39,159 nt of DNA, from assembly GCF_018305005.1 (NCBI RefSeq), contig NZ_JAGQEG010000053.1, forward strand, positions 1 through 39,159. Reading direction: 5' to 3'. The stretch comes from Collimonas silvisoli (GTDB lineage: Bacteria; Pseudomonadota; Gammaproteobacteria; Burkholderiales; Burkholderiaceae_D). Below the pieces are notes generated by a model. That model did not search any database, had not been told where the DNA came from, and worked only from the letters and a program-made list of their open reading frames with translations. Shown in pieces: positions 12,052 to 15,167 of this stretch (position 1 is its first letter; each line of letters starts with the position of its first letter). Made by a program: the position numbers and the translations under genes.

Positions 12052-14151
12052 ATGAGTATGGTTGAAGTCAAGGTCCCGGATATCGGCGACGTCAAAGAAG
12101 TAGAAGTGATCGAACTGATGGTCAAGGTGGGCGATACCGTCAAGGTCGATCAGTCGCTGATCACCGTGGAATCGGACAAGGCCAGCATGGAAATTCCGTG
12201 CAGCCAGGCCGGCGTCATCAAGGAAATCAAGGTCAAGGTAGGCGACAAGGTAAGCGAAGGCTCGTTGATACTGGTGGTGGAAGCCGCCGCAGCTGCCGCC
12301 GCTCCCGTTGCAGCATCGACACCGGCTGCAGCGCCGGCCGCCGCGCCGGTAGCGGCACCTGCAGCAGCGCCCGCAGCAACCGGCGCTGTCAGCACCATCG
12401 AAATCAAAGTGCCGGATATCGGCGATGTCAAGGAAGTCGACGTCATCGAATTGATGGTCAAGGCGGGTGACAGCGTCAAAGTCGACCAATCGCTGATCAC
12501 CGTCGAGTCCGATAAGGCCAGCATGGAAATTCCTTCCAGCCACGCCGGTGTCATTAAAGAAGTCAAGGTCAAGGTCGGCGACAAGGTCAGTGAAGGTTCG
12601 CTGATCGTGTTGCTGGAAACTGCCGGTGCAGCATCGGCGCCGGGGGCAGCTCCTGCAGCAGTTGCGGCTCCTGCCGCTGCGCCCGCTGTCGCCGCTCCGG
12701 CCGCAGTCAGTTTCGCCGGCAAGGTCGATATCGAATGCGACACCATGGTGCTGGGTGCAGGCCCCGGCGGTTATACCGCAGCTTTCCGGGCTGCAGATCT
12801 GGGGCAAAGCGTGGTGATGATCGAGCGTTATCCCAGCCTCGGCGGGGTGTGCCTGAACGTCGGTTGCATTCCGTCCAAAGCATTGCTGCATGCGGCCAAG
12901 GTGATTACCGAAGCCGAGGAAATGGCGCACTTCGGCGTCAAGATGTCGGCGCCGGAAATCGATATCGACGCCTTGCGCGGCTGGAAAGAAAGCGTCATCA
13001 AGAAACTCACCGGCGGTTTGTCCGGCCTGGCCAAGGCGCGCAAAGTGCAAGTGCTGACCGGCAAGGGCGAATTCAGCTCGGCCAATACCATCACGGTAGC
13101 AACCGCGGATGGCCCGAAAGTGGTCGGTTTCAAGAATGCGATTATCGCAGCCGGTTCCTCGGTCGCCAGAATCCCCGGTTTCCCTTACGACGATCCGCGC
13201 TTGATCGATTCCACCGGCGCGCTGGAACTGCGCCAGATCCCAAAGAAACTGCTGGTCATCGGCGGCGGCATTATCGGCCTGGAAATGGCTTGTGTGTATG
13301 ATGCGCTCGGCTCCAAAGTAACCGTGGTCGAATTTGCCGACGGCCTGATTCCGGCAGCCGACCGCGATGTCGTCAAGCCGCTGCAAAAACGCATCGAAAA
13401 ACGCTACGAAGCGATTTACCTGAAAACCAAGGTCACCAAGCTGGAAGCTTTGAAAGAAGGCTTGCGCGCCACGTTTGAAGGCGCCGACAGCAACTCTCCG
13501 GCAGCACCGGAACCGCAACTGTACGACATGGTGCTGATGGCCGTAGGCCGCCGCCCTAACGGCAAGGACATCGCAGCGGAAAAAGCCGGCGTGATCGTCA
13601 ACGAACGCGGCTTCATTCCGGCCGACAAACAGCAGCGCACCAACGTCTCGCACATCTTTGCCATCGGCGACATCGTCAGCGATCCTATGCTGGCGCACAA
13701 AGCCACCAACGAAGCCAAGGTTGCCGCCGAAGTGATCGCTGGTCACAAGGTCGAATTCGATGCGATGACCATCCCTTCGGTGGCGTACACCGATCCGGAA
13801 ATCGCCTGGATGGGCCTGACCGAAACTGAAGCCAAGGCCAAGGGCATTCCTTTCGAAAAGGCTAATTTCCCGTGGGCGGCAAGCGGCCGCGCATTGGCGA
13901 TGGGCCGCGACGACGGCATGACCAAGCTGTTGTGGGATCCAAGCAGCAAGCGCATCATCGGCGCCGGCATCGTTGGCGTGAATGCCGGCGAACTGTTGGC
14001 GGAAACCGTGCTGGCGATGGAAATGGGCGCGGATCTGGAAGATCTGGCGCTGACCATCCATGCGCATCCAACGCTGTCGGAGACGCCGATGTTTGCGGCT
14101 GAAATGGGCCTGGGCACGATTACCGATCTGTTCATCCCGAAGAAGAAATAG
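12052..14151 (+). CDS. lpdA: dihydrolipoamide dehydrogenase (E3) with two N-terminal lipoyl domains
   Basis: FAD enzyme that reoxidises dihydrolipoamide with NAD+ for the pyruvate dehydrogenase complex. It is 699 residues, far longer than a plain E3 (about 470). Domains: lipoyl domain 1 (2-78, Lys43), Ala/Pro linker, lipoyl domain 2 (about 115-190, Lys155), a second linker, then the E3 body from about 228 with the FAD motif [11 protein letters not shown], the redox pair C267/C272 in [10 protein letters not shown], the NAD motif [11 protein letters not shown], the second FAD motif AIGDIV, and the C-terminal HAHPTLSE with catalytic His/Glu. Its own GGAG lies eight bases before ATG 12052; a stronger GGAGG sits in a small hairpin (12016-12031). 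Lipoyl-E3 fusions are known in betaproteobacteria; two copies are notable. Confidence 0.96.
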
Positions 14152-14188: not shown

Positions 14189-14229
14189 AAAAAACGCCGT
14201 TCCGGAATCAAGCGGAACGGCGTTTTTAT
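14189..14229 (+). terminator. Rho-independent terminator of the PDH operon
   Basis: AAAAACGCCGTTCCG / CGGAACGGCGTTTTT stem with loop GAATCAAG, flanked by A-run and T-run. A smaller inverted repeat (GCGTGGGC / GCCCACGC, 14159-14181) lies between it and the lpdA stop. Confidence 0.9.
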
Positions 14230-14314
14230 TTAGAACTCATTTCATCAATATCCGCGAGTGCGAACGCGGCTATTGGGGAGGTAGTGCAAGGCGCGTCGGG
14301 CAGCCAAGGGTGTT

Positions 14315-14398
14315 CCTTGCAGGACGCGTTTCCGCTTGCAAGCGGAAACCGTTTCGCAGGCGGACAGCATGCTGTCCGAATTCCCTGCTACACCCCTT
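14315..14398. repeat. direct-repeat copy A inside the palindromic element
   Basis: Contains the 22-base perfect palindrome at 14328-14349 (arms GTTTCCGCTTG / CAAGCGGAAAC) and the 18-base palindrome CGGACAGCATGCTGTCCG at 14361-14378. Copy B differs by paired changes in the same stems. Confidence 0.88.
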
Positions 14399-14517
14399 GG
14401 CAAGCGGCGCAACGCAGCAATACGCCCCAATAGCCGCGTTCCCGAACGGTTCTTGCCAGAAGAGTCGCTGGCTGCGTTGCGCTCCTTGCCAATAGCTCGC
14501 TATTGGACGCGTCGCAC

Positions 14518-14600
14518 CCTTGCAGGGCGCGTCTGCGCTGGTAGGCGCAGACCGTTACGCAGGCGCACAGCATGCTGTGCGAATTCCCTGCTCCACCCTT
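14518..14600. repeat. direct-repeat copy B inside the palindromic element
   Basis: Contains hairpin GTCTGCGC / GCGCAGAC at 14531-14552 and the 18-base palindrome CGCACAGCATGCTGTGCG at 14564-14581. Relative to copy A, stem positions change on both sides at once, so pairing is kept. Confidence 0.88.
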
Positions 14601-14684
14601 GCCAGCACCTCTTCTGGCAAGAGCGCATCTCACGGATATTGATGAAATGAGTTCTAAGCTCAGTCAGCAGCAATCAATCGAAAA

Positions 14685-15167
14685 TTAGTCGAAATACCGG
14701 CGCACCGCCTCAAAGCGCGTTGCGTAATAACGGTTGTCGAGCCGGTCTATGCGCACTCTGCCGTTGGTCGACGGCGCATTGATGAAGCGGCCGTCGCCAA
14801 TGTAAATGCCGACATGGGAAAAAGCCCGGTGCATGGTATTGAAAAAAACCAGATCGCCGGGCCGCAACTCAGCCTTGGAGATGGCCCGGCCCTGGCGTGC
14901 GATGTCTGCCGCGCTGCCGCTGACTTTGAGGCCCGCAGCCTGCCTGTACACATAACTGACCATGCCGCTGCAATCGAGCCCGGCTTCCGGATTTTTGCCG
15001 CCGAAGCGGTAGTTGGTATCGATCAGGCCCAGCGAATAAATGACGATGTCGTTGCCCTTATCGCTGACCGGCGTGTCGTCGGCAGAGCCGGGGCGGACCG
15101 AACCAACTCCGCCGCAAGCTGCCAGCAACAATGCCAGGCAACAGATAAAGAGATTTTTTAACGTCAT
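14685..15167 (-). CDS. NlpC/P60-family peptidoglycan hydrolase lipoprotein
   Basis: Probable outer-membrane-anchored endopeptidase acting on peptidoglycan stem peptides in the periplasm. The 160-residue protein starts MTLKNLFICCLALLLAACGG, a lipoprotein signal with lipobox LAAC. The NlpC/P60 domain follows: catalytic Cys in GLDCSGMVSYVYR, catalytic His in FSHVGIYIGDGRFINAPS, and the usual RPGDLVFF loop. It is a single-domain form like Spr/MepS. It lies 44 bases downstream of the aminotransferase on the same strand and is convergent with the PDH operon across the palindromic element. Confidence 0.9.
   Translation of the reverse strand: MTLKNLFICCLALLLAACGGVGSVRPGSADDTPVSDKGNDIVIYSLGLIDTNYRFGGKNPEAGLDCSGMVSYVYRQAAGLKVSGSAADIARQGRAISKAELRPGDLVFFNTMHRAFSHVGIYIGDGRFINAPSTNGRVRIDRLDNRYYATRFEAVRRYFD

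What the first reader, a model, noticed from the sequence alone, without database searches (positions are those of the whole stretch)
14230..14657. Cloverleaf-like 428-bp repeat whose two arms carry compensatory base changes
Seen directly: a perfect 25-bp terminal inverted repeat encloses two arms, each closed by its own perfect stem (17 bp and 14 bp) and each carrying one copy of an ~84-bp repeat. The copies differ mostly in paired positions. The stem CGGACAGC...GCTGTCCG in copy A is CGCACAGC...GCTGTGCG in copy B, and the upstream hairpin changes from GTTTCCGC/GCGGAAAC to GTCTGCGC/GCGCAGAC. Paired changes that keep pairing suggest selection on a folded RNA or single-stranded DNA form, not simple decay. 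Inference: a non-autonomous mobile element (mobilised in trans through its terminal repeats) or a structured RNA; no ORF is inside.
Basis: partly seen in the sequence, partly recalled or inferred. Interest (0 to 1): 0.82.

Follow-up and report, generated by a model that had tools for sequence, protein, structure and literature searches.

The report
Cloverleaf-shaped non-coding mobile DNA element
A short, non-coding jumping DNA element that folds like a cloverleaf; its matching base changes are real but look more like DNA-copying corrections between its mirrored arms than the mark of a working RNA, and a related core turns up in other bacteria behind different end sequences.

Summary
The element is 14231-14656, TA at both ends; congener flanks join without it. 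It is a MITE: non-coding, 6 paired copies in its own genome, ends found in 25 of 195 family genomes. 859-bp IS5-family insertion sequences with the same or one-base-variant ends exist in two relatives; none was found in its own draft genome. The basic form is ~269 bp; the window copy carries one ~80-bp REP-like insert in each arm.
Forty-one copies show very strong covariation (56 of 96 pairs changed on both sides). I read it as template-switch correction: paired changes at both ends of single copies (11; shuffles average 0.3) and inverted junction loops. Lack of RNA strand bias (G·U:A·C 60:48; RNase P 86:11) supports this but fades at stricter thresholds. DNA-level selection remains possible. 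A homologous core occurs behind other ends in this genome and in other Burkholderiales.

The parts
14231..14656 (.). whole element, TA at both outer ends (2-bp TA target duplication), 426 bp
   Evidence: sequence; flanks continuous without the element in congeners
14230..14254 (+). left terminal inverted repeat, TTAGAACTCATTTCATCAATATCCG
14633..14657 (-). right terminal inverted repeat
14262..14441 (.). arm A (17-bp closing stem, internal loop, apical hairpin interrupted by an ~80-bp insert)
14441..14449 (.). junction mini-hairpin between the arms (CCC-GAA-CGG here; CCCNNNGGG in most copies)
14451..14622 (.). arm B (14-bp perfect outer stem within a 22-nt 91% pair; conserved loop sequences GTTGCGCTCCTTGC...GCGTCGC around the hairpin CCAATAGCTCGCTATTGG)
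14315..14395 (-). inserted REP-like unit, copy 1 (in arm A)
   Evidence: absent from the 268-269-bp copies
14518..14598 (-). inserted REP-like unit, copy 2 (in arm B), with GCAAGG on both sides when read on the minus strand
14190..14227 (.). perfect inverted repeat with a T run just outside the element, kept at the sites without the element in congeners; looks like an intrinsic terminator (host sequence, not part of the element)

Best explanation
It is a MITE of the IS5 type, derived from or living off insertion sequences whose ends read TAGAACTCATTTCATMAATA and which insert at TA. Shown: ends, TA at both edges, sites without it, dispersed copies, and insertion sequences with these ends and IS5-type transposase frames in related genomes. 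Inferred: that their transposase moves the MITE in trans. The basic element is about 269 bp: an outer stem formed by the terminal repeats, two arms of about 105 bp and a hairpin with a three-base loop at the junction. The window copy is longer because an ~80-bp REP-like unit inserted into each arm, next to a GCAAGG-like site. The two sides of each stem change together. The mechanism I favour for that is template switching (quasipalindrome correction) during DNA replication, in which one arm is copied from the other, so that the palindrome keeps itself without RNA-level selection. This last step is inferred.
For: TA edges and sites without the element; T before and A after in 47 of 63 elements. 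Ends in 25 of 195 family genomes drawn from a larger group, own genome included, 9 of 44 genera. 859-bp IS5-family elements with two overlapping transposase frames in G096 and G064. In G064 the insertion sequence (at one end) and the MITE (at both) carry the variant TAGAACCCATTTCATAAATA, seen at one other place in the partial listing. Copies of 268-269 and 131 bp without the inserts in the same genome. Covariation: 56 of 96 pairs; score 0.287 against 0.033-0.059 for slid controls. Ends: 11 identical changes at both ends (10 elements, about 9 different changes) and 9 one-ended, 8 of these in L108, L143, L149 and L180, which are degenerate or tiny; shuffled ends give 0.30 on average, at most 3 in 1000. 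Junction loop TTC 16/GAA 8 and TCC 8/GGA 6, two reverse-complementary pairs, 38 of 41. PMC8794818 (passages) names multiple compensatory changes and inverted loops among the expected marks of template switching. G.U:A.C 60:48 against 86:11 for RNase P at the 50% threshold (p = 1e-7).
Against: The G.U:A.C contrast depends on the threshold: 55:47 against 37:11 at 75% (p = 0.007), 35:22 against 15:6 at 90% (p = 0.6); for the other strand 67:34 (p = 0.0002 at 50%, 0.25 at 75%) and 25:25 at 90% (p = 0.12) (cells are not independent, so p is rough). Strict thresholds also throw out G.U-rich pairs, but the doubt stands. Recent one-copy changes: Collimonas group (7 rows) 10 double, 6 one-sided, but 6 of the 10 lie in the outer stem and overlap with the end statistics; Herminiimonas-type group (18 rows) 2 double, both in L120, against 7 one-sided; all 41 rows 13 double, 21 one-sided. 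Inverted loops were seen at the junction, not at the two apical loops. The ratio of double changes to unpaired cells is lower than in RNase P (1.96 against 3.10 at 75%). Shuffled ends do not allow for relatedness. No insertion sequence with these ends was seen in the own draft genome; its IS5_3 hits are N-terminal only and below cut-off, so the copies here may be stranded.
Confidence: 0.66

Rival explanations
1. A structured non-coding RNA (or cis-acting RNA structure) under selection, spread as a repeat; compensatory changes reflect selection on the RNA fold.
For: Very strong covariation and fold energy; conserved loop segments across genera; at strict thresholds the mismatch pattern cannot be told from RNase P.
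Against: No clear G.U excess on either strand at the lax threshold, where RNase P has 86:11; paired changes also at the transposon ends; deletion forms of 36-58 bp without the core exist; no Rfam family comes near its gathering score (7 matches up to E 1, best E 0.025).
Confidence: 0.1
2. Selection at DNA level for a hairpin or cruciform, for example because the extruded form helps transposition, is bound by a host protein, or protects the element; compensatory changes are kept by that selection.
For: The architecture and ~270-bp size recur behind different terminal repeats; loop sequences are conserved while stems vary; near-symmetric mismatch pattern.
Against: Selection would have to act on individual insertions; paired changes private to single copies are hard to get by two independent mutations; arm-less derivatives carry intact ends.
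Confidence: 0.2
3. A decayed palindromic relic of an insertion sequence with chance pairing.
For: No copy that I read has a convincing gene.
Against: Fold z about -15; covariation far above shuffles and slides; TA edges and sites without it; same architecture in several genera.
Confidence: 0.02

Closest known systems
Bacterial MITEs (ERIC, NEMIS, RUP, Bcr1, Nezha and others; named in PMC3733652, passages read)
   Same: Short, non-coding, long terminal inverted repeats, dispersed, folding strongly, thought to be moved by transposases that recognise their ends.
   Different: Two-armed core with a junction hairpin, homologous to cores behind other ends; paired changes at both ends of single copies; arms that took in a second, REP-like unit. 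I saw no description of this in the listings or in the passages; subscription journals are mostly not held.
IS5-family insertion sequences (NCBIfam NF033580, transpos_IS5_3)
   Same: Same or one-base-variant ends with TA at the outer edge in G064, G096 and G062; transposase in two overlapping frames in G096 and G064.
   Different: The MITE is non-coding, and a profile of its core finds nothing in these insertion sequences (4 sequences, E up to 10), so the core is not a visible remnant of them.
REP/BIME repeats (for the ~80-bp inserted unit)
   Same: Paired hairpins, dispersed copies, a tandem pair in L018.
   Different: No copy in the fetched flanks (up to about 1.5 kb, some cut by contig ends) of 16 Y1-transposase genes in 8 genomes; sits after GCAAGG-like hexamers.
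Template-switch mutation in hairpins (PMC8794818, passages read)
   Same: Paired changes in one step, inverted loops.
   Different: That work concerns RNA genes; here such marks appear in a mobile DNA repeat and at its ends.

Membership tests
MITE (non-autonomous IS derivative) | short, no transposase or other convincing gene | tested here: met
MITE (non-autonomous IS derivative) | terminal inverted repeats | tested here: met
   25 bp perfect
MITE (non-autonomous IS derivative) | target-site duplication and empty site | tested here: met
   TA at both ends. Of nine congener loci aligned, four keep alignable sequence across the site without the element: L197 and L198 read TTTAAATCAG (one TA), L196 and L199 TTTATATCAG (TATA); the other five have diverged there
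MITE (non-autonomous IS derivative) | dispersed multicopy | tested here: met
   20 end sites in own genome at up to 2 mismatches, 6 pairs and 8 unpaired; 68 distinct pairs collected, 63 kept for the end statistics
MITE (non-autonomous IS derivative) | ends shared with an autonomous element | tested here: met
   859-bp IS5-family elements in G096 and G064; none found in own genome
MITE (non-autonomous IS derivative) | mobilisation in trans shown | not testable with these tools
   needs a transposition assay
structured RNA | covarying base pairs | tested here: met
   56 of 96 pairs
structured RNA | G.U tolerated over A.C on the transcribed strand | tested here: inconclusive
   element 60:48, 55:47, 35:22 and other strand 67:34, 67:34, 25:25 at thresholds 50, 75, 90%; RNase P 86:11, 37:11, 15:6. 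Clear difference at 50% only for both strands, at 75% for one, at 90% for none
structured RNA | transcribed as a discrete RNA | not testable with these tools
   no RNA-seq held
structured RNA | member of a known Rfam family | tested here: not met
   7 matches up to E 1, none near its gathering score
REP/BIME (81-bp unit) | dispersed palindromic repeat | tested here: met
   9 copies of about 81 bp in own genome including the two here; further copies in the family
REP/BIME (81-bp unit) | associated RAYT (Y1) gene | tested here: not met
   0 of 16 Y1 loci carry it in the fetched flanks; relatives outside these 8 genomes not looked at
template-switch correction | paired changes in one step, in single copies | tested here: met
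   (11 paired, shuffles mean 0.30); weaker (12 double, 13 one-sided in two groups, partly the same changes)
template-switch correction | inverted loops | tested here: inconclusive
   seen at the junction loop (38 of 41 in two reverse-complementary pairs), not at the two apical loops

The most novel reading that the evidence does not exclude
The two-armed core is a genetic module in its own right that swaps terminal repeats: it rides behind the ends of different IS5-like insertion sequences across Burkholderiales (TAGAACTC..., TAGGGCCTGTTAACA..., TAGGGCGTGTCGTCACC..., and others), so one structured passenger exploits several transposases, while template switching between its mirrored arms keeps it palindromic and makes both terminal repeats evolve in concert within each copy.
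Probability: 0.35. Interest if true: 0.75.

Novelty: new variant of a known kind. Interest (0 to 1): 0.58.

Why it matters
Covariation is the usual evidence for a functional RNA. Here is a large natural set with very strong covariation in a mobile DNA element, with paired changes even at the ends of single copies and no clear RNA strand bias. It offers a test bed for telling template-switch correction from selection, and a caution for screens that call RNA structures from covariation alone. The related core behind different ends also raises a testable question: how MITEs change transposase.

Tried and rejected
Structured RNA: ranked low, not excluded. Rfam: nothing near a gathering score. RAYT-type mobilisation of the ~80-bp unit: no adjacency to 16 Y1 genes. 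Autonomous partner of the type-2 and type-3 ends: no transposase seen in the stretches read (L367-L381); G400 has no NF033580 match. Gene-orientation bias of insertions: a crude ORF-based script (17 tandem, 15 divergent, 3 convergent) misjudged the window's own convergent context, so it is not used. Direct repeats round the apical hairpin: supported in arm B (27 of 41 with at least 12 of 16 identical, shuffles 3 of 820), not in arm A (0 of 41). Order-wide pattern for the arm B loops: 20 of 399 genomes, but the reversed control rang 13 times in 12 genomes; outside G000, G064 and G400 there are 18 matches in 17 genomes, about the control level, so single hits mean little; nine loci from five of these genomes were looked at. 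A first RNase P control aligned only 4 sequences because of a motif error; one search replaced it (28 sequences; one second copy dropped). Phages: no match; plasmids: two Burkholderia records. Literature: searches found nothing; 23, 43, 45, 49, 63, 74, 77, 78 listed related work; four papers were opened, passages only.

Rows dropped before counts: of the 58 pairs of at least 190 bp, 17 were left out of the structure alignment: L001, L002, L026, L116 and L008 (carry the insert; L008 also lacks most of arm B), L007, L009, L028, L088, L092, L110, L112, L151 (shortened), L108 twice, L126, L143 (unclear or degenerate). Kept although odd: L097, which has an insert of the same kind and lacks most of arm B, and L118, L140, L141, L144 with short extra stretches. 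For the end statistics 5 of 68 pairs were dropped: four 36-bp pairings (L002, L006, L058, L102) and the second L108 pairing; the two freely variable positions 14 and 15 were counted apart. In one search the pattern itself demanded an ending like TGCAAGG, so only the hexamer before the unit is a finding.

Full report
What is there. It folds far better than shuffles as RNA or DNA, z about -15 in both, 0 of 100 shuffles as good. It lies between two genes that point at each other: a lipoyl/pyridine-nucleotide-disulphide oxidoreductase (12052-14151, +) and an NlpC/P60 protein (14685-15167, -), just behind a terminator-like hairpin at 14190-14227.

It is an insertion. Of nine congener loci aligned, four keep alignable sequence across the site and lack the element: L197 and L198 read TTTAAATCAG and L196 and L199 TTTATATCAG, where the window has TA on either side of the element; the other five have diverged there. 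Over 63 elements with both ends, T precedes the left end and A follows the right end in 47.

It is one of many. With up to 2 mismatches the 22-base end occurs at 20 places in the own genome, six pairs and eight unpaired, and in 25 of 195 family genomes (own genome included; drawn evenly from a larger group), 9 of 44 genera. With up to 1 mismatch of a 20-base pattern it occurs in 9 of 399 genomes of the order, five in the family and four outside it (G242, G258, G424, G532); of these four, two stretches of G242 and G424 were read and showed single ends, and none was followed further. Named hits are Herminiimonas, Undibacterium, Noviherbaspirillum, Collimonas and unclassified betaproteobacterial MAGs. 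I collected 68 distinct pairs.

It is nested. Copies of 268-269 bp at C9, C88 and C233 of the same genome lack both 81-bp units; another of 131 bp at C197 lacks most of the core. The 81-bp unit occurs by itself: 9 copies in the own genome and more in the family. Of 14 long copies found by a pattern that fixes the end as TGCAAGG-like, nine follow GCAAGG, the others CCAAGG, GCTAGG, GCCAGG or GGAAGG. The unit sits in both arms of an element in another genus too (G062, L139). So each arm of the window copy was entered by the same kind of unit, at a sequence that is conserved in the arms. Whether it moves by a Y1-type enzyme is open: no copy lies in the fetched flanks of 16 Y1 genes.

Its likely mover. 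Insertion sequences of 859 bp with the same or one-base-variant ends exist in G096 (L111) and in about twelve copies in G064 (L276-L278 read). Their two overlapping frames match DUF4096/DDE_Tnp_1 and NCBIfam transpos_IS5_3; G062 and G161 hold partial or decayed ones. G064 also holds MITE copies with the end TAGAACCCATTTCATAAATA, the variant its insertion sequence has at one end. In the own genome no such insertion sequence was found. A profile of the MITE core finds nothing in four of these insertion-sequence stretches.

Paired changes. On 41 copies (one of them, L097, has an insert and lacks most of arm B) 96 predicted pairs have 97% of cells paired. In 56 pairs some copy has changed both sides. 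The covariation score is 0.287, against 0.095 in shuffles and 0.033-0.059 when partners are slid.

What makes them. An RNA tolerates G.U but not A.C. RNase P, one copy from each of 28 genomes of the family, gives 86 G.U to 11 A.C at the 50% threshold, 37:11 at 75%, 15:6 at 90%. The element gives 60:48, 55:47 and 35:22, and folded on the other strand 67:34, 67:34 and 25:25. The difference from RNase P is clear at 50% (p = 1e-7 and 2e-4), remains at 75% for the given strand only (p = 0.007; other strand 0.25) and is gone at 90% (p = 0.6 and 0.12). So a strand bias is not seen, but the comparison is not decisive. In the two densest groups, 12 changes seen in one copy only are double (11 still paired) and 13 one-sided: 10 and 6 in Collimonas, 2 and 7 in the Herminiimonas type, where both doubles are in L120; over all 41 rows 13 and 21. 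At the ends, outside the two freely variable positions, 11 departures occur identically at both ends of one copy (10 elements; L002 and L006 share one and L009 and L027 another) and 9 at one end, 8 of these in four degenerate or tiny elements; shuffled ends give 0.30 on average and at most 3, without regard to relatedness. Some are multi-base, as in L003 and L027. The three-base junction loop is TTC (16) or its reverse complement GAA (8), TCC (8) or its reverse complement GGA (6), in 38 of 41; the apical loops show no inversion. Multiple simultaneous compensatory changes and inverted loops are what template switching predicts (PMC8794818, passages). Against it, the ratio of double changes to unpaired cells is lower than in RNase P. 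I hold template switching likely, not proven, with DNA-level selection as the main rival.

A core behind several ends. A profile of the 41 cores without their ends finds 11 of 13 elements of the same genus, own genome included, that end in TAGGGCCTGTTAACA or close to it (type 2), 13 of 15 elements of a genome of another family, G400, that end in TAGGGCGTGTCGTCACC (type 3), a 284-bp Burkholderia cenocepacia element with a different 31-bp end, and a one-armed element in G232. All hits counted have E up to 0.04, the best of each kind 9e-16, 2e-14, 8e-14 and 4e-10; the best of 40 shuffled controls has 0.19, and the four missed are short deletion forms (E-values are for this small set). Likeness between types 1 and 2 runs up to GAGATGCGTTC / GAGTGCGAACGCG and stops at the end sequence (read by eye). 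The ends of types 2 and 3 are akin to each other (11 of 15 bases) and intermediate ends occur in the own genome, which speaks for divergence as much as for swapping; types 1, 2/3, B. cenocepacia and G232 are the clearly different ones. The five I folded share the plan of outer stem and two arms; the B. cenocepacia one lacks the CCCNNNGGG junction; G400 also holds one-armed and end-to-end derivatives.

Verdict. A known kind of object, a bacterial MITE, with unusual anatomy and an unusually clear record of how its arms evolve.

Noticed in passing
own genome G000: C7:6521-6865, C144:54296-54639, and contig ends such as C4, C22, C29, C75, C122: A second MITE type with ends TAGGGCCTGTTAACA and a related core; the contig ends that were read break inside it.
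   Followed up: partly
L275 1336-1619 (Burkholderia cenocepacia NZ_CP091013.1): A 284-bp two-armed element with a different 31-bp terminal repeat and the same arm B loop sequences; the 3.2-Mb record is labelled a plasmid but is of chromosome size.
   Followed up: partly
L342-L355 and L361 (G400): A third family of about 270-bp elements with ends TAGGGCGTGTCGTCACC, in both core orientations, with one-armed (170 bp) and 54-95-bp deletion forms.
   Followed up: partly
L149, L158, L166, L180: Minimal elements of 38-60 bp that consist of little more than the two ends.
   Followed up: no
G000:C175:22573, C235:18154, C11:68118-68139, C88:44611; also L184: Unpaired right ends of about 37 nt that stop at the same place (GCGTTCT read outward in), as if derived in one way.
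   Followed up: no
L018 (G019:C65:75927-76093): Two ~60-bp relatives of the REP-like unit in tandem about 106 bp apart, BIME-like.
   Followed up: no
arm B of most copies, e.g. window 14474-14516: The sequences on the two sides of the arm B apical hairpin are a direct repeat of about 16 nt rather than complementary; 27 of 41 copies reach 12 of 16.
   Followed up: partly
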